Of a stretch of DNA of 16,797 bases, positions 2,575 to 16,635 are shown piece by piece (within the stretch, counting starts at the first letter, position 1; every line of letters begins with the position of its first letter). Both the position numbers and the translations under genes were made by a program. Under the pieces are notes generated by a model that was not told the origin of the DNA, searched no databases, and worked only from the letters and a program-made list of their open reading frames with translations. This stretch comes from Campylobacterota bacterium (lineage in GTDB: Bacteria > Campylobacterota > Campylobacteria > Campylobacterales > Sulfurovaceae): assembly GCA_013153825.1 (NCBI GenBank), contig JAADDP010000154.1, positions 1 to 16,797 of the forward strand. The letters are read 5' to 3'.

Positions 2575-3231
2575 TTAATTAAAAATTTTATCTAAAAATC
2601 CCTCTTTTGGAGGCTTTATATCTGTTAAGTTCAATACAGAGTTTCTATTCTTATCCCTATATATTTTGGATGCTCCATATTTCCCTATTCTCTCATATAG
2701 ATTGGCAATATCCTCATTGAGAAGATACTCTGCCATGTGCAGTCTAACCTTAATTGTCTCTGCCAATGCCCTATATATTGAGTTTGGGTATCTCGTTATA
2801 AAACTATCTGCCTCTTTAATAGCCTTTAAAATTAGATTTTGGTCTCTATTGATATCCTTTAACCTTAAAAAAGATGCTTTTAATTTCATAAATTTAATAT
2901 ACTCAACCCTTCTACCAGTGGCATACTTCTTTAGATACTCATCTAAATAGTAGTCTGCCATTATGTAACTACCATCATCAATATGTGCATTTGCCAATAT
3001 TAGAGTTGCCGTTGGTAGTAGTTGAGAGTGTGTATGTTCGCTTCTAAGTGATATATAGTAGTTATCTGCCTTATCTAGGTTGGAGTTCACTATATCTATG
3101 ATTTTCATGTACCAATATATTGCCGATTTGTCATACTCCTTTGAGGCATCTTTTGAGCTACATCCAGTAGATAGCAGTGTATATAACACTACTATAAATA
3201 TAGTGGTGCTACTCTTATATCTATTTAACAT
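2575..3231 (-). CDS. bamD: Outer membrane assembly lipoprotein BamD (ComL family)
   Basis: A 218-residue predicted lipoprotein. Residues 1-24 form a lipoprotein signal: basic start, hydrophobic stretch 10-20, then STGC with Cys24 as the likely lipidated residue. The -3 residue is Ser rather than the usual Leu, so the lipobox is slightly off consensus. The rest is helical with TPR-like pairs (for example around 84-103 and 136-160, including a YPNSIY segment typical of the family). BamD works with BamA to fold beta-barrel proteins into the outer membrane. Length matches Campylobacterales members. The start is supported by AAAGG seven bases upstream. It sits directly ahead of lon, as Cj1074c does ahead of Cj1073c in C. 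jejuni. The assignment rests on size, lipobox, TPR character and neighbourhood rather than on a single diagnostic motif. Confidence 0.82.
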   Translation of the reverse strand: MLNRYKSSTTIFIVVLYTLLSTGCSSKDASKEYDKSAIYWYMKIIDIVNSNLDKADNYYISLRSEHTHSQLLPTATLILANAHIDDGSYIMADYYLDEYLKKYATGRRVEYIKFMKLKASFLRLKDINRDQNLILKAIKEADSFITRYPNSIYRALAETIKVRLHMAEYLLNEDIANLYERIGKYGASKIYRDKNRNSVLNLTDIKPPKEGFLDKIFN

Positions 3232-3320: not shown

Positions 3321-4052
3321 ATGGATTTGACAATTATTGGAGCCGGAGCTATGGGGTTAGCCCTAGCTAAGGGGTTGAGAAGAGAACACAATATTGAGTT
3401 TTTAGTTAGAGATATCTCAAAATATGAGCAGTTGAGAGATGAATATATCATCAACAGTATAGATGGATTTGATATTTCAGAGAGAGCTATAATTTTAGCA
3501 GTTAAACCGTACGGCTTATCCAGTGTAGCATCTAAAGTTGTTGGTGAAGCTGATGTGATATATTCAGTTTTGGCCGGAACATCTATTGATACTCTTAAAT
3601 CCTCGCTAATATCTAAATATTATGTTAGAGCTATGCCAAATATATCGGCTAAATTTCAGAGTTCAACAACTGTGATTACGGGTGATATTGAGAGGAGAGA
3701 TAGTGCAATTTCTCTACTCTCTCTAATTGGAGATACATTCTGGGTTGATAGTGAAAAGGAGATAGATATAGCTACAGCCGTTGCAGGTTCAGGTCCAGCA
3801 CTTCTGGCACTCGTAGCTGAAGCTATGGGTGATGGGCTGGTTAGAGAGGGTATGAAGAGGAGCGATGCGATGGCAATCACAAGTTCTCTATTTAAAGGTT
3901 TTCATCCACTCATAGCAGATAGCCACCCAGCCCTAATAAAGGATAGTGTTATGAGTCCAGCAGGAACTACAGCTAGAGCATATTATGCTCTTGAAGATGA
4001 GGGGGTTAGAGGTGCATTTATAAGAGCTATAGAGGAGGCAAATCGCTTTTAG
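3321..4052 (+). CDS. proC: Pyrroline-5-carboxylate reductase
   Basis: A 243-residue cytoplasmic enzyme that reduces pyrroline-5-carboxylate to proline with NAD(P)H, the last step of proline synthesis. The N-terminus has a Rossmann dinucleotide-binding fold with GAGAMG at 8-13. The C-terminal dimerisation and active-site domain carries the P5CR signature region, DSVMSPAGTTARAYYALE at about 208-225. Inside it the usual SPGGTT reads SPAGTT, a mild variation. The protein is slightly shorter than the E. coli enzyme (269), as in other Campylobacterota. AAGGAT lies about six bases before the ATG. It is monocistronic and divergent from bamD-lon. In C. jejuni proC lies near the same pair, with fliW in between; here fliW is missing. 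Confidence 0.93.
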   Translation: MDLTIIGAGAMGLALAKGLRREHNIEFLVRDISKYEQLRDEYIINSIDGFDISERAIILAVKPYGLSSVASKVVGEADVIYSVLAGTSIDTLKSSLISKYYVRAMPNISAKFQSSTTVITGDIERRDSAISLLSLIGDTFWVDSEKEIDIATAVAGSGPALLALVAEAMGDGLVREGMKRSDAMAITSSLFKGFHPLIADSHPALIKDSVMSPAGTTARAYYALEDEGVRGAFIRAIEEANRF

Positions 4053-4318: not shown

Positions 4319-4342
4319 ATGTTAAAAGGGCTATATAAATGA
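4319..4342 (+). CDS. Seven-residue leader ORF (MLKGLYK) overlapping the next start
   Basis: ATG with AAAGGAT at normal spacing opens a frame of seven codons. Its TGA overlaps the ATG of the large gene in the arrangement ATGA. The mini-ORF has the better ribosome binding site of the two starts, which suggests translational coupling. Whether the peptide has any role of its own cannot be seen. Confidence 0.4.
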   Translation: MLKGLYK

Positions 4343-7300
4343 GAATAATATTTACACTATTAATAGCTTTAAATATAGTATATGGAGCAGTATCCGGAAT
4401 AGCATTTAGAGACTATAATGCAGATGGAGTTAAACAGGATGGTGAGCCAGGGGTAGGAGAGATTGTTGTAAAAGTTTATAGTAGCTCTGGGGCATATCTA
4501 AAAGAGGTGACTACAGATGATGCTGGTAAATATAGCATAGATATTCCAGAGTTTCCCGTAAGATTGGAGTTCAATATACCTGAAGATGGGATGGATTTAA
4601 AGAGAGGAGAGGAGTACCCATCTGCCGGAGCAGATAAATATGGCAGTTCAATACAGTTTGTCAATAGAGATGGAGAGGTACACAACTTCGCATTAAGTTT
4701 TCCATATGACTTCTCAATAGAGGATAACCCGTGGGTATTTGTCCCAATTAGAGGAAATGGTGACCCACTCATAGGGGATGATAACAACGATACGTTAATA
4801 GGTAACGTTGGTGGTATAGCAAAATTTAGATTCTGGAACCACGGTATAGCGTCAAACTCAGGAAGGGGTGATGGGGATACCGGCCCAGCATGGGTTGAGC
4901 TTGTAAAGTTGAAGCAGGTTGGAAGTCTCCATGGAATTGCCTACTCTAGACAGGCTAGAAAGGTCTTTGCATCTGCATTTCTCCAACGACATATGGGGAT
5001 GGGACCACTCGGAGCAGGGGGGATATATATCATAGACCCAGATAGAAACTCCTCTGAACAGAGTGGAGATGTTGGATTTATAAATCTAGATGAGCTTGGC
5101 ATTCCCACAAGTGATACTAATGGAGAGTATAACGATACAGTTATAAATAGTGGAGACAATTACACCCTAAATGACTCTATACCATTTAATCCAGTAATAG
5201 GTACAAATATCGAAAGGGGACTAATGGCAGATAAGTGGGCACCCAACCACGACTCTGCAGCCTATAGTCAAGTTGGAAAGTTGAGTTTAGGGGATTTGGA
5301 GATAAGTGATGATGGTAGATATCTCTACAGTGTAAACTTATATGATAAGAAGCTATATGAGATAGATTTAACCAACCCAAAAGAGCCAATAGCTCCTGTA
5401 GTATCAAATGCTAAAAAGAAGATTAGAAGCTTCAATATCCCGAACCCATGTATAACACCTGAGAGTGGGGAGGCTAGACCATTTGGACTAAAGGTTAGAA
5501 AGAATAGGTTATATGTGAGTGTTACATGTAGTGGACAGAACTATAGAGGAGATGTTGTAGCGAGAACAAATTCCGATATAAAAGGGGTGATATATAGTCT
5601 AGACCTACGGGATAAGGATAAACCCTGGGTCGAGGAGATATCTTTTCCATTAAACTATAGAAATAATGATGGGAGTGATAGACCTTGGAATATATGGACA
5701 ACTGAGTATAAGGGTACCTACTACCATAGGGAGTATCCCACACCTCTAATTGCTGATATTGAGTTTGATAATGCCGGTAATATGCTGATTGGAATTATGG
5801 ATCTGCATGGTAGCCAAAATGGGTACTATAACTACACTCTAAGTACAACGGCAAAAGATGATTTTGGTACTCTAAATGGAGATTTAGTTCGTGCTAGGAG
5901 GGTCTTTAAGAGTGGAAAGTACTCCTATGAGATGAATCCAGAGGATTTAGTTAATGAGTATTATAATGATAATGTATTTATGCATAAAGAGAATAGTATG
6001 GGGGCATTAGCCGGACACCATACAAGTGAGAAAAACTTAATACTATTAACATTTATGGATGTAAACTATGATAAGTCAAAAAATGCCTGTTCAGGTACGA
6101 TGCTCTATAATAATGAGACAGGAAATAGAGCTTATGAGGAGATGGGAGAGACTAAGTATCTCGGTTATGAGATAATACACTACAGGCTATCAAAAATCGG
6201 TAAATCTAACGGTCTGGGTGATATTGAGACAATGGAGGCCGTTCCACCAGTTGAGATTGGAAATAGAGTATGGATGGATAGTAACGGAGATGGAATTCAA
6301 GATGCAAATGAGAGTGGAATTGCAAATGTGAAGTTGACGCTAAATAAGGGTATTAGATGTAATCCAAATAGTGATGAGAATGTTACAACGACGGATAGCA
6401 ATGGTAACTTCATATTTAACCATACAAACTTCAATACTAGAAGCTCAACTCCAGGGCTACAGGAGGATACAACATATACACTATGTATTGATAGAACTCA
6501 ATTTCAGAATGGAAGAGGTGTAGATGGGACACCTCTAAATGGTCTATATCTCACAGTTGATGATAGAGATGGGAACTTCTCCGACTATCCAGATAGGGTA
6601 GATTCAGATGCTAAGTTGAGTCTATCTGGATATGCATATATAACATTTACCACAGCTGGGTCGGGAGAGAATAGCCACGACTACGATATTGGATTGACAG
6701 ATAATAATGGAGGTCAGTTCAGAGGAACTTTTAATGTAGAGATGACACATAGTGGGCAGTATAAGATTAATACAAAAGAGAGAAATGCTTGGTTCACACA
6801 GATTGTTGGACGAGACTTTGACTACTCTCTACTACTATATGATGAGAATATGACTGAAGAGCAGAATCTAGATAGAATTGTTGTAAAGATATCTCTAATA
6901 AATGAGGATACAAATCTCTCAATGTATGATAAGTATGGATACTTTTTAAATACAACTAGGGCAGATAACCTCATACCGAATGACCTAGATAAGCTCCCTG
7001 CAACAAAGAGAGCTAGATTTAGGATATTCTACGGTTTAGAGGATAATGGCTCTCTTATGAGGGTTGACTGTAACGATACTCCAAAAGCCTGCTTTGAGGC
7101 TCTTCCAAAGATAGACTATACAGATGCCAGAGATAACTTTGCAATTAGACCAGCCTATTTCCATATAACGATATCTGATAATGGAGTTGCCAGAGCAATG
7201 AATACTCCTCCATTAAAGGTCTCCCCATTTAGAGCATCTGCTGGGTATGATTACAATCTCACGGTCATAGCATCTACATATAAAGGTAACGAGAAGAACA

Positions 7301-8742
7301 ACTCCATAGGCTATAACAGTTTTGCCTTAAGGTCTCTAAACTTTCTCGATAAGGGGAATAGTGCATGTTCAAAAAAGATAGACTATAACAAAAATATAAA
7401 GTTTGATGATGGAGAGAGTATAAATCTCTTGAGAGTATCTGAGGTTGGCCCATACGCCTTACATGTTGAAGATAGTAGCTGGGCTATGGTGGACTTTCCA
7501 AATGGCGATTGTGATATAAATAGCTCCCACGTATCGGATGACCCAAACTCAAAGTCTGGATGTAGTATATCTAGTTCAAGTGTAGATGATATAAATATAT
7601 CGCTCTATCCACACCACTTTGACCTATATCTAAAGTTGAAGAATATTCCAACCACGAACCACAATGACTTTATCTATATGACCGATTTAAACTCCACATT
7701 TGATAGCGTAGCAATCTCATATAGTGGTAATATAGTGGCTAAGGGTAAAGATGGAGTTACAACAACAAACTTTACATGTAACTGCTTCGGTGAAGATATA
7801 CTGTTTGACCTAAATGTAACATCTATATCTGATAATGGTAGAGATGTAGGAATTCAGACGGCAAAAGGCTCACCTATAAAGTTTGTGAGACTTCTGAAGT
7901 TTAACAATGAGAATATACCACTTGTGACCAGAGATAGAGAGTTTAGAAATCTCACATCGATGTTAATCCCAAAAGATAAGTTTATAGATGATAATAATGG
8001 AACTCTATTTATAGATTTAAGATATAATATTGCAAAGAGTCTATTTGAGCCTACAAATCCAATTCAACTTGAATTTAGAAATGTGGATGTTAACTCAACA
8101 GATGCCTACTCAATCGCAGAGGGAAGAGATAGCTTAGACCCACATATACCGAGAGGATATAGATATCTTGGAGACATAATTAAGAACTTCTACTGCTCAA
8201 GGGTCTCACCAGATAAGAGAAACTACCCAAATATAAACTTTAATAATGTGGCATTTGTGAGAACCCCTATGCAGATTGAGATATTTTGTGGAATTAATGT
8301 CGATTTAAAGTACTGTATGGATAAGAATTTAACAAACCATACAATTAAGAGTAGCTCTCCTAGAGCTCAGAGTGGCTGGTTTATCTCAATAGACCACAAT
8401 AGGAGTGTTGATGGTGATGTCATTGAGCTTATCCCAGATAGCAATGACCCAAATGTATTGACATTCTCAACTATCTCAAATCCAACATTCCCTATTCAGT
8501 TTCCAAAGGGTAGAAATGGAACGGTAACCACAAAGTTTACAAATCCTGTTGGAGTACAGAGCTATAAGGTATTTATGCATCCATCTCCTCAACATAGATA
8601 TTCGGAAAAGAGTAGAGATGGTATAGACTACTTTGTAGTTAGGGGTTCTGATATAAACTCAACATGGAGTGGTGTCGGCTCTACAGGTAATGTAATTGAT
8701 ATAAAACCCAATCTAGCCCCATCACGTAAATTGGATTGGTAA
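4339..8742 (+). CDS. Large exported surface protein with two SdrD-type B domains
   Basis: A 1467-residue protein with a Sec signal peptide (about 1-16, likely cleavage after VYG). Residues 17-115 form an SdrD/Cna-B-like domain with a calcium-type loop, DYNADGVKQDGE (25-36). Residues about 130-630 look like a beta-propeller: GSLHGIAY begins at 195, and LGDLEISDDGRYLYSV and further strand repeats follow. A second B domain starts at 638 with the loop DSNGDGIQDANE (647-658). The remaining 700 residues look like Ig-type beta-sandwiches with scattered cysteines that could form disulfides; one unit seems to open at DNFAIRP. The C-terminus ends KLDW, with no LPXTG, autotransporter barrel or membrane anchor. 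There are 21 D/E-X-N-X-S/T sites. It is monocistronic with its own promoter and a terminator-like hairpin after the stop. Function is probably adhesion or matrix, inferred from architecture only. Confidence 0.85.
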   Translation: MRIIFTLLIALNIVYGAVSGIAFRDYNADGVKQDGEPGVGEIVVKVYSSSGAYLKEVTTDDAGKYSIDIPEFPVRLEFNIPEDGMDLKRGEEYPSAGADKYGSSIQFVNRDGEVHNFALSFPYDFSIEDNPWVFVPIRGNGDPLIGDDNNDTLIGNVGGIAKFRFWNHGIASNSGRGDGDTGPAWVELVKLKQVGSLHGIAYSRQARKVFASAFLQRHMGMGPLGAGGIYIIDPDRNSSEQSGDVGFINLDELGIPTSDTNGEYNDTVINSGDNYTLNDSIPFNPVIGTNIERGLMADKWAPNHDSAAYSQVGKLSLGDLEISDDGRYLYSVNLYDKKLYEIDLTNPKEPIAPVVSNAKKKIRSFNIPNPCITPESGEARPFGLKVRKNRLYVSVTCSGQNYRGDVVARTNSDIKGVIYSLDLRDKDKPWVEEISFPLNYRNNDGSDRPWNIWTTEYKGTYYHREYPTPLIADIEFDNAGNMLIGIMDLHGSQNGYYNYTLSTTAKDDFGTLNGDLVRARRVFKSGKYSYEMNPEDLVNEYYNDNVFMHKENSMGALAGHHTSEKNLILLTFMDVNYDKSKNACSGTMLYNNETGNRAYEEMGETKYLGYEIIHYRLSKIGKSNGLGDIETMEAVPPVEIGNRVWMDSNGDGIQDANESGIANVKLTLNKGIRCNPNSDENVTTTDSNGNFIFNHTNFNTRSSTPGLQEDTTYTLCIDRTQFQNGRGVDGTPLNGLYLTVDDRDGNFSDYPDRVDSDAKLSLSGYAYITFTTAGSGENSHDYDIGLTDNNGGQFRGTFNVEMTHSGQYKINTKERNAWFTQIVGRDFDYSLLLYDENMTEEQNLDRIVVKISLINEDTNLSMYDKYGYFLNTTRADNLIPNDLDKLPATKRARFRIFYGLEDNGSLMRVDCNDTPKACFEALPKIDYTDARDNFAIRPAYFHITISDNGVARAMNTPPLKVSPFRASAGYDYNLTVIASTYKGNEKNNSIGYNSFALRSLNFLDKGNSACSKKIDYNKNIKFDDGESINLLRVSEVGPYALHVEDSSWAMVDFPNGDCDINSSHVSDDPNSKSGCSISSSSVDDINISLYPHHFDLYLKLKNIPTTNHNDFIYMTDLNSTFDSVAISYSGNIVAKGKDGVTTTNFTCNCFGEDILFDLNVTSISDNGRDVGIQTAKGSPIKFVRLLKFNNENIPLVTRDREFRNLTSMLIPKDKFIDDNNGTLFIDLRYNIAKSLFEPTNPIQLEFRNVDVNSTDAYSIAEGRDSLDPHIPRGYRYLGDIIKNFYCSRVSPDKRNYPNINFNNVAFVRTPMQIEIFCGINVDLKYCMDKNLTNHTIKSSSPRAQSGWFISIDHNRSVDGDVIELIPDSNDPNVLTFSTISNPTFPIQFPKGRNGTVTTKFTNPVGVQSYKVFMHPSPQHRYSEKSRDGIDYFVVRGSDINSTWSGVGSTGNVIDIKPNLAPSRKLDW

Positions 8743-14971: not shown

Positions 14972-15424
14972 ATGGATATTGAGTTAATTAGTAAGATTGT
15001 AGATTACGCTATTATGGGTATATTGGGCTTTATGAGTTTTCTTACACTATTTTTTTGGATAGAGAGAGTTCTTTTTTTCAGAAAACTAGATATCTCAAAA
15101 TACTCAACAAAAGAGAGATTAGAGATAGATATTACAAATAATATATCTATCTTATCCAGCTTTGGGGCAAATGCTCCATATGTTGGATTACTCGGGACGG
15201 TGCTTGGGATAATAGTTACATTTTACACTTTAGGAGAGAGTGGAAACCTTGATGTAAAGAGTATTATGACATCTTTAGCACTTGCACTAAAAGCTACTGC
15301 CATGGGTCTCGCTGTAGCAATTCCTGCCATATTCTTCTATAACCATCTCATTAGAAAGGTGGATGTAATCTTGGCAAAGTGGGAGATACTAGAGAGGAGA
15401 AGAGGTGAGGCTAAGAAGGTTTGA
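14972..15424 (+). CDS. exbB: TonB-system energizer ExbB (type 2)
   Basis: A 150-residue inner-membrane protein of the MotA/TolQ/ExbB proton-channel family, in the short form typical of Campylobacterota. Three membrane segments are visible: about 12-32, about 65-90 with the conserved APYVGLLGTVLGI, and about 105-130 with SLALALKATAMGLAVAIPA, the segment that lines the proton path in the family. It is a scaffold for ExbD and TonB and uses the proton gradient to drive TonB. The ribosome binding site AGGAT overlaps the nusA stop, ten bp upstream, so the gene is probably transcribed with nusA. The 3' end overlaps exbD by 20 bases. Confidence 0.93.
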   Translation: MDIELISKIVDYAIMGILGFMSFLTLFFWIERVLFFRKLDISKYSTKERLEIDITNNISILSSFGANAPYVGLLGTVLGIIVTFYTLGESGNLDVKSIMTSLALALKATAMGLAVAIPAIFFYNHLIRKVDVILAKWEILERRRGEAKKV

Positions 15425-15794
15425 TACCATAAATGTTGTCCCATTTATAGATATTATGTTGGTAATTCTGGTAATAGTATTGACAACAGCCTCCTTTATC
15501 CAACTTGGAATTATAGAGTTGAAACTACCAACAGCAGATGGAGAGAGTATAAAGAGCCGTAAGGTTGAGGAGCTTAATATATCCATAACAGATGTTGGAG
15601 ATATCATATTTAATAGGGAGAAGATAGAGCAAGATAGGTTGGAAGAGAGGCTCAAGGAGCATAATAGAAGTGTAAATATAACCCTCTATTGCGATCGCTC
15701 TGTAAAGTTTGAGAGGTTTGTATATCTTCTTGATATATTGAAATCTAATGGGTATGAGAATTTAGGTATTATGACAGAGAGAGATGGGAAGTAG
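15405..15794 (+). CDS. exbD: TonB-system energizer ExbD (type 2)
   Basis: A 129-residue partner of ExbB with a single N-terminal membrane segment (about 11-32) and a periplasmic domain. The proton-carrying aspartate is Asp16 in NVVPFIDIMLV, equivalent to Asp25 of E. coli ExbD. The start is GTG, inside exbB, with GAGGAGA about eight bases upstream; no ATG could restore the conserved N-terminus. The 20-base overlap with exbB and 11-base overlap with tonB indicate coupled translation of the complex. Confidence 0.93.
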   Translation: MRLRRFDTINVVPFIDIMLVILVIVLTTASFIQLGIIELKLPTADGESIKSRKVEELNISITDVGDIIFNREKIEQDRLEERLKEHNRSVNITLYCDRSVKFERFVYLLDILKSNGYENLGIMTERDGK

Positions 15795-16635
15795 CAGATA
15801 TATCTACTCATTTATGGCCACAGCTCTAATATACATATCACTTATATATGGGATATACACCTTAAATTTTAAGAGAGAGATTAAGAGGGAGAGAGCAGAG
15901 ATTGTAAAGATAGCTCTTATTAAACCTCCTCCTATACCTACGCCTATGAAGATTGCTAAGAGGGTAGAGGCAAAACCCAAAATAAAACGTAAAATTAAGA
16001 GGCGAAAGAGGGTTAAAAGGGTAAAACGAAATAGAAAGAGGCTTAAGAGAAGAGCTAAAGTTCACCATAGGGCTAAGAAGAGGAGAAAAATAGAGGAGAG
16101 TAGCCACATAGAGAGGAGAGTTGTAGAGAGGGTGAAAAATAGACCGATAGCAACTCCAGTAGCAACCCCAGAACCTGAGCCGATTGAGGAGTATATAGAA
16201 TATCAGAGATATACTCCACCAGCTGAAACTATGACACCCCCAAGTGAGTATCACCAGAGTAGAGCAGAAGATAGGGTTGAGAGGGCTAAACCTATAGAGA
16301 AGCGTAGAGAGATTAAACCATCAACAGGAGGTGGTAAAAATTTAAGTGGGGAGAAGAGGGAGTTTCTAAGTGGAATTAGAGAGAGTATAAATCTTAACAA
16401 ACGATATCCTAGAAGGGCTAAGAGGCTTGGAATTGAGGGGGTTGTAAGGGTTACATTTGATATAAATTCAGATGGAGATGTCTCAAATATAAGAACATCT
16501 GATGCACCAAATATCCTTAAAGGGGCAGTTATAAGAGCTGTAAAAGAGTCATTCCCAGTTGATATTCCAGATAATATAGCATCTATATTTCCAATTAGAG
16601 GGGTATCCGTTAAGTTGATATTTAGGCTAAATTAG
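15784..16635 (+). CDS. tonB: TonB energy-transducing protein with very basic linker
   Basis: A 283-residue protein that spans the periplasm and passes ExbBD energy to TonB-dependent outer-membrane transporters. One membrane segment (about 8-28) is followed by a short proline stretch (KPPPIPTP, 47-54). Residues 64-102 contain 27 Lys/Arg in 39 positions and no acidic residue, where TonB usually has Pro-Glu/Pro-Lys repeats. A more ordinary Pro/Glu-rich part follows (about 120-160). The C-terminal TonB domain starts around 195 with RYPRRAKRLGIEGVVRVTF (Tyr208-Pro209) and ends IFRLN. It overlaps exbD by 11 bases and its stop overlaps the stop of the convergent next gene. No TonB-dependent receptor lies in the window, so the cargo is unknown. 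Confidence 0.92.
   Translation: MGSSRYIYSFMATALIYISLIYGIYTLNFKREIKRERAEIVKIALIKPPPIPTPMKIAKRVEAKPKIKRKIKRRKRVKRVKRNRKRLKRRAKVHHRAKKRRKIEESSHIERRVVERVKNRPIATPVATPEPEPIEEYIEYQRYTPPAETMTPPSEYHQSRAEDRVERAKPIEKRREIKPSTGGGKNLSGEKREFLSGIRESINLNKRYPRRAKRLGIEGVVRVTFDINSDGDVSNIRTSDAPNILKGAVIRAVKESFPVDIPDNIASIFPIRGVSVKLIFRLN

What the first reader, a model, noticed from the sequence alone, without database searches (positions are those of the whole stretch)
4339..8742. Exported protein loaded with PglB-type N-glycosylation sites
By hand count the protein has 31 N-X-S/T sites (X not Pro); 21 have Asp or Glu at -2, the extra residue required by the Campylobacter oligosaccharyltransferase PglB (D/E-X-N-X-S/T). 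Asp plus Glu are only about one residue in seven, so four or five would be expected. The sites run from N150 to N1440; 18 of the 21 are after residue 638. Examples are DRNSS, EYNDT, DENMT, DYNLT, DKNLT and DINST. One, DANES, lies in a calcium loop and is a poor acceptor. The bias suggests selection for a heavily glycosylated surface protein.
Basis: partly seen in the sequence, partly recalled or inferred. Interest (0 to 1): 0.75.

Follow-up and report, generated by a model that had tools for sequence, protein, structure and literature searches.

The report
Adhesin studded with N-glycosylation sites
A giant exported protein of a Sulfurovum-like bacterium, like many of its relatives across the Campylobacterota, carries far more sugar-attachment sites of the Campylobacter type than chance allows, which points to a cell-surface or pilus protein under selection to be densely coated with sugars.

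Summary
Variant motifs show no such excess.

The genome has a full-length PglB beside pglF/E/D/C-like genes. In a 25% genome sample, other exported proteins are enriched (52/143 sequons; 109/832 other Asn) and cytoplasmic ones are not (32/224; 265/2055). Among homologues, acid at -2 follows presence of the sequon column by column (odds ratio 11.6).

New here: the C-terminal ~680 residues are a divergent relative of DUF6701, found in 74/200 genomes of the phylum. Of 20 loci examined, 17 have pseudopilin-like genes and 15 the same lon-yfiO neighbourhood as the window. Nineteen homologues from 18 genomes carry 465/880 extended sites.

Against: one PglB+ genus has fewer than background (7/149), and a genome without detectable PglB is enriched.

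Best reading: a Sec-exported pilus-locus adhesin, densely N-glycosylated by PglB. No glycan is shown; the pilus link is inferred.

The parts
4339..8742 (+). Gene for the 1467-aa exported protein with 21 D/E-X-N-X-S/T sites
   Evidence: own match
4339..4386 (+). Signal-peptide-like N-terminus (residues 1-16; cleavage point by eye)
   Evidence: Classified 'exported' by a hydrophobicity rule of my own; no dedicated predictor was available
4339..6714 (+). N-terminal half (residues 1-792), shared with paralogues in the same genome and with proteins of Spirosoma and Streptomyces plasmids; 6 of the 21 sites
   Evidence: sites
6253..6423 (+). SdrD_B domain, best stretch (residues 639-695); holds DANES (N657) and N681
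   Evidence: PF17210 78.1 bits, cut-off 29.7
6697..8739 (+). C-terminal region (residues 787-1467), string of beta-sandwich-like domains, divergent relative of DUF6701; 15 of the 21 sites
   Evidence: model with mean pLDDT 87.3; sites
8665..8739 (+). Low-confidence C-terminal tail (last 25 residues) ending in a conserved [KR]-[MIL]-x-W
   Evidence: pLDDT under 50; 36 of 36 homologues with a complete C-terminus end in this pattern
4780..8664 (+). Span of the 21 extended sequons, N150 to N1440
3321..4052 (+). proC-like gene upstream
   Evidence: P5CR_dimer 96.6 bits; conserved beside homologues
2575..3231 (-). YfiO-like lipoprotein gene, conserved neighbour
   Evidence: PF13525 49.7 bits
179..2560 (-). 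Lon-type protease gene (name from its sequence, recalled), conserved neighbour

Best explanation
The protein is exported through the inner membrane, and in the periplasm PglB transfers a lipid-linked glycan to many of its D/E-X-N-X-S/T sites, giving a densely N-glycosylated adhesin. It belongs to a Campylobacterota family whose conserved C-terminal region, distantly related to DUF6701, sits in a lon-yfiO-(proC) neighbourhood together with pseudopilin genes, so it probably reaches the surface with a type IV pilus or type II secretion-like machine. Selection keeps the number of sites high while their positions turn over, as expected if the glycan coat (stability, protease resistance, adhesion or shielding) matters rather than any single glycan. 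Shown: site excess, motif specificity, column-wise covariation, PglB and pgl-like genes, family and synteny. Inferred: actual glycosylation, surface location, pilus route, and the purpose of the coat.
For: Site statistics. Covariation: within 20 aligned C-terminal regions, D/E at -2 is present in 271/453 cells with a sequon and 205/1080 cells of the same columns without one (Mantel-Haenszel 11.6); nine other offsets give 0.41-1.88. 126 columns hold a sequon in some row, 62 an extended one; each row keeps 8-19 extended sites. Exported against cytoplasmic contrast in the own genome. PglB with the C. lari R331 equivalent; pglF/E/D/C-like cluster. Family-wide: 21 homologues from PglB+ genomes of the genus 360/857 vs 393/2526 other Asn; 19 homologues from 18 further PglB+ genomes 465/880 vs 207/2031; 20 pseudopilin-like genes of the same loci 48/113 vs 31/265. 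73 of 74 genomes with the C-terminal domain have PglB against 72 of 126 without it. A non-Campylobacterota SdrD_B protein (Spirosoma fragment, 3,364 aa) shows no bias: 7/70 vs 16/174. Own genome has five T2SSE ATPases over the cut-off and two secretins.
Against: PglB is not sufficient: in one PglB+ genus (f10 g13) seven homologues have 7/114 and their seven pseudopilin-like neighbours 0/35 extended sites, together below background (88/763; lower tail p 0.003). PglB was not found where the bias exists: G034 (100% complete) has none by three searches, yet three of its proteins have 24/47, 6/15 and 7/20; six proteins of G034, G012 and G013 together 61/153 vs 129/592. Two of five PglB+ order-level genomes sampled (G036, G051) show no significant bias in exported proteins, and the pooled contrast between PglB+ (29/137) and PglB- (21/123) genomes is weak. 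The R331 equivalent is also kept by relaxed enzymes (PMC4894442, passages). Extended sites are not clearly more often in coil (11/15) than other Asn (30/48). In the window no pseudopilin gene follows; the next gene is a permease. Phylogenetic dependence was not removed from the covariation and co-occurrence figures.
Confidence: 0.77

Rival explanations
1. The D-x-N-x-S/T pattern comes from calcium-binding loops (DxDxDG type) or another structural motif of adhesin domains, not from glycosylation.
For: The protein is Asp- and Asn-rich with SdrD_B domains; DxNx[DN] is mildly in excess (6 vs 2.2) and DANES lies in such a domain.
Against: Gly at N+3 in 1 of 21 sites; [DE]xDx[ST] not in excess; Thr favoured at +2; the Spirosoma SdrD_B protein shows no bias; homologues in genus f10 g13 keep the domain without the motif; sites turn over between homologues; unrelated exported proteins of the genome also show it.
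Confidence: 0.05
2. The sites are PglB sites, but the protein is a secreted or outer-membrane adhesin with no functional link to a pilus.
For: Signal-peptide-like start; adhesin-type domains (Calx-beta, GEVED, SdrD_B, Laminin-G, bacterial Ig) in family members; no pseudopilin gene next to the window copy; best structural matches are generic Ig-like, FnIII-like and alpha-2-macroglobulin-like folds, including adhesins SiiE, FdeC and PrgB.
Against: Pseudopilin-like genes at 17 of 20 phylum loci and beside family members in the genus at L062 and L068; positional conservation with lon-yfiO at 15 of 20 loci.
Confidence: 0.3
3. The sites are relics of past glycosylation, no longer used in some lineages.
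For: G034 has the bias but no detectable PglB; genus f10 g13 has PglB but no bias.
Against: The window's genome has a full-length PglB with the motifs aligned; the bias extends to other exported proteins there.
Confidence: 0.08

Closest known systems
PglB general N-glycosylation system of Campylobacter jejuni/lari
   Same: Full-length PglB with the TIxE-like motif (TVRE) and R331 equivalent, pglF/E/D/C-like genes beside it, same acceptor motif.
   Different: Acceptor density. In C. hepaticus, 9 of 33 identified glycoproteins had two or more sites and the examples given have three sequons (PMC9816155, passages); this protein has 21 and a relative's 3,670-aa fragment has 92. PglH, PglI, PglJ and PglK equivalents were not sought; the glycan is unknown.
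PglB enzymes of deep-sea vent bacteria, including Sulfurovum lithotrophicum
   Same: Same kind of organism; these enzymes are reported as identified oligosaccharyltransferases (statement citing Mills et al. 2016, seen as a passage of PMC6025236).
   Different: That work is about the enzymes; I saw nothing there on this acceptor family.
DUF6701 (PF20419); by recall the C-terminal domain of MshQ of MSHA pilus loci
   Same: Target region 1.3e-4, 21.7 bits; 5 of 30 family members match, best 7.2e-13. In G240, G083 and G062 the DUF6701 and family matches overlap; in G050, G092 and G080 they lie in the same open frame. Pseudopilin-like neighbours.
   Different: Target is below the Pfam cut-off of 27 bits. 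The MshQ link is recalled; no paper in the library holds 'DUF6701'.
SdrD_B / MSCRAMM-type adhesins
   Same: SdrD_B domain over cut-off.
   Different: SdrC model 33.8 bits against a cut-off of 1700; no such site bias in the one Bacteroidota SdrD_B protein tested.

Membership tests
PglB-type N-glycoprotein | D/E-X-N-X-S/T acceptor sites beyond chance | tested here: met
   21 vs 2.3 expected
PglB-type N-glycoprotein | PglB in the same genome | tested here: met
   L074:6030-8264, three Pfam domains over cut-off; below the NCBIfam equivalog cut-off for PglB (651 of 1300 bits)
PglB-type N-glycoprotein | Passage through the periplasm | tested here: inconclusive
   Signal-peptide-like start by a home-made rule
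PglB-type N-glycoprotein | Glycan attached to Asn | not testable with these tools
   Needs mass spectrometry
C. jejuni-type pgl cluster | pglF, E, D, C and a glycosyltransferase near pglB | tested here: inconclusive
   Polysacc_synt_2, DegT/DnrJ, hexapeptide acetyltransferase, Bac_transf and GT4 genes in a row beside pglB. Only the acetyltransferase passes an NCBIfam cut-off (TIGR03570), so diNAcBac synthesis is inferred; PglH, I, J and K were not sought
DUF6701 (PF20419) | Pfam gathering score of 27 bits | tested here: not met
   21.7 bits for the target region; relatives pass at the same loci
Pilus-associated (MshQ-like) protein | Pseudopilin genes in the same locus | tested here: inconclusive
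   17 of 20 homologous loci by a motif search; 3 of 3 tested pass Pfam N_methyl; not in the window itself
SdrD_B domain (PF17210) | Pfam gathering score of 29.7 bits | tested here: met
   78.1 bits, two stretches

The most novel reading that the evidence does not exclude
Campylobacterota outside the Campylobacter-like genus f10 g13 use PglB to build a mucin-like N-glycan coat on pilus-locus adhesins and on the neighbouring pseudopilins: tens of sites per protein, up to 92 in a 3,670-residue fragment, with site number but not position under selection. Lineage f10 g13 has kept the locus and PglB but has shed, and perhaps avoids, the sites, so the degree of pilus N-glycosylation was switched during evolution.
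Probability: 0.5. Interest if true: 0.82.

Novelty: new variant of a known kind. Interest (0 to 1): 0.72.

Why it matters
Bacterial N-glycosylation is known mainly from Campylobacter proteins with one to a few sites, and its purpose is unsettled. A family in which the extended sequon is enriched about tenfold, and in which column-by-column evolution shows the -2 acid and the sequon appearing together, is direct genomic evidence that N-glycan density is selected, and it names the proteins on which to test why. The natural contrasts (a PglB+ genus without the sites; a site-rich genome without detectable PglB) make the question testable. It also offers natural acceptors with many sites for glycoengineering.

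Tried and rejected
Calcium-loop or other structural-motif origin: rejected by variant motifs, Gly at N+3 in 1 of 21, the Spirosoma control and lineage f10 g13.

Cytoplasmic enrichment: the first sample gave 19/87 vs 116/918 in 'cytoplasmic' ORFs (p 0.016); 7 of those 19 came from one HTH-transmembrane-linker protein (L084:7335-8300) that my classifier misplaced. With the larger sample and that protein dropped, 32/224 vs 265/2055. ORFs cut off at the 5' end (such as L073, 17/24) were left out of the class comparison.

PglB presence/absence as a natural experiment: only partly works (see evidence against). In one search the group of homologues from incomplete genomes without PglB (G002, G011) counted one protein twice (L012 and L066), so its pooled figure is not used.

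Naming the organism: the first scan of genome contigs with the single protein found no relative; with alignment A1 it gave 35 loci, 14 of whose titles name Sulfurovum.

Literature: ten searches. None of the listings showed a paper on this acceptor family or on site density in Campylobacterota adhesins; apart from passages of PMC4894442, PMC6025236 and PMC9816155 I saw only listings and abstract starts. One search found no paper with 'DUF6701'.

Homologue selection: of 74 genomes with the domain, 20 loci were taken and 5 shorter ones, chosen by hand for complete or long contigs before their sites were counted for the 20; the 5 were chosen afterwards to extend genus f10 g13 (three) and family f15 (two). 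My own hmmsearch did not recover the homologues of G050, G155, G123 and G189 at 1e-3; their membership rests on the match coordinates.
Full report
Observation. The ORF at 4339-8742 encodes 1467 residues with 31 N-X-S/T sites, 21 with Asp (18) or Glu (3) at -2. Composition shuffles give 2.26 +/- 1.49 extended sites with a maximum of 9 in 20,000; dipeptide-preserving shuffles give the same mean with a maximum of 8 in 2,000. Only offset -2 is special: 21/31 sequon Asn against 18/105 other Asn, with 3-6 of 31 at ten other offsets. Eleven variant motifs are within 2 SD of expectation, while N-X-T is in excess (21 vs 7.6).

Own genome. The window is contig C119 of an unnamed assembly of 1.21 Mb, 199 contigs, 77.6% complete. 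It has one PglB homologue (744 aa, L074:6030-8264) with all three Pfam domains, aligned over 53-743 to C. lari PglB with the TIxE-like motif and the R331 equivalent in place. In a row beside it are a GT4 glycosyltransferase, a Bac_transf (PglC-like), a hexapeptide acetyltransferase (PglD-like), a DegT/DnrJ aminotransferase (PglE-like) and a Polysacc_synt_2 enzyme (PglF-like). In 41 contigs (297,116 bases) exported proteins other than the target carry 52/143 extended sites against 109/832 other Asn with acid at -2; exported proteins under 900 aa alone 35/107 vs 72/674 (odds ratio 4.1); cytoplasmic ones 32/224 vs 265/2055. Export was judged by a simple hydrophobicity rule.

Family. In 60 relatives the protein has matches in 35, and the PglB core is found in 47. 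The C-terminal ~680 residues align among 20 homologues. Column by column, acid at -2 accompanies the sequon (271/453 cells) far more than it occurs in the same columns without a sequon (205/1080; Mantel-Haenszel 11.6), and no other offset tested exceeds 1.9. Extended sites occur in 62 columns, with 8-19 per protein: number is kept, positions turn over. All 30 PglBs aligned (the window genome's among them) keep the R331 equivalent, but relaxed enzymes keep it too (PMC4894442, passages), so the -2 preference of this PglB is predicted, not proven.

What the protein is. The C-terminal region matches DUF6701 weakly (1.3e-4, 21.7 bits, cut-off 27), 5 of 30 family members match it, the best at 7.2e-13, and DUF6701 over the cut-off occurs in 8 of 200 phylum genomes, in six of which it falls in the same proteins as the family profile. 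The family profile finds 74 of 200 genomes of the phylum. At 20 loci fetched, 17 have pseudopilin-like genes beside the big gene (3 of 3 tested pass Pfam N_methyl) and 15 have both lon and yfiO homologues, the neighbourhood of the window (lon, yfiO, proC, target). So the target sits where relatives have a pilus-type locus, although no pseudopilin follows it here. By recall, DUF6701 is the C-terminal domain of MshQ of MSHA pili; that link comes from no call. N-terminal parts vary: Calx-beta, DUF6923 and GEVED in a homologue, Laminin-G in another, bacterial Ig in others, SdrD_B here. The N-terminal half here resembles a paralogue of the same genome, whereas a homologue beside proC in another genome has Calx-beta repeats, which suggests a domain swap. 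The model of the C-terminal region is confident (mean pLDDT 87.3) and all-beta except for a disordered tail of 25 residues that ends, in 36 of 36 complete homologues, in [KR]-[MIL]-x-W, possibly a sorting or docking signal.

Phylum-wide sites. Nineteen homologues from 18 further PglB+ genomes carry 465/880 extended sites against 207/2031, and 20 pseudopilin-like genes of their loci 48/113 against 31/265. The extreme is a 3,670-residue fragment of G039 with 92/124. Of 74 genomes with the domain 73 have PglB; of 126 without it 72 do, a figure not corrected for kinship.

Results against. Seven homologues of genus f10 g13, all from PglB+ genomes, have 7/114 and their pseudopilin-like neighbours 0/35, together below background (p 0.003). 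G034, reported 100% complete, has no PglB by three searches, yet its proteins are enriched: 24/47, 6/15, 7/20. Proteins of G012 and G013, also without detected PglB, are mixed: 16/31, 12/26, but 2/28 and 1/6. Pooled order-level samples differ only weakly: PglB+ 29/137 vs 89/889 (odds ratio 2.4), PglB- 21/123 vs 126/947 (1.3). PglB is thus neither sufficient nor, as far as assemblies show, strictly necessary for the bias; missing contigs or recent loss could explain the latter.

Verdict. Dense PglB glycosylation of an exported adhesin of a pilus-type locus is the best reading. In C. hepaticus 9 of 33 identified glycoproteins had two or more sites (PMC9816155, passages), so the density here is unusual. 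Enzyme and sequon are known; the hyper-acceptor family and the evolutionary signature are what is new.

Noticed in passing
L084:7335-8300 (own genome, C100): A 321-aa protein with an HTH-like start, one transmembrane stretch and an acidic linker holds 7 extended sites of 9 sequons, most of them in the linker; it looks RodZ-like (recalled).
   Followed up: partly
L205:3873-5306 (own genome, C196): A 478-aa lipoprotein-like exported protein with 7 extended sites of 10 sequons and no Pfam match.
   Followed up: no
L233:3-11015 (G039): Fragment of a protein whose open frame is 4,079 aa, with 92 extended sites of 124 sequons in the 3,670 residues fetched.
   Followed up: partly
L236, L237, L238, L241, L249-L251 (genus f10 g13): Homologues and pseudopilins in PglB+ genomes with fewer extended sites than background, as if avoided.
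   Followed up: partly
window 8665-8739: Disordered tail ending in a conserved [KR]-[MIL]-x-W; may be a sorting or docking signal.
   Followed up: partly
window 4339-6714 against L059:13689-19151: At the proC locus the window copy has an SdrD_B-type N-terminal half, a relative has Calx-beta repeats: an apparent domain swap upstream of a conserved C-terminal region.
   Followed up: partly
window 14972-16635: Three genes that read like exbB, exbD and tonB (from their sequences, recalled).
   Followed up: no
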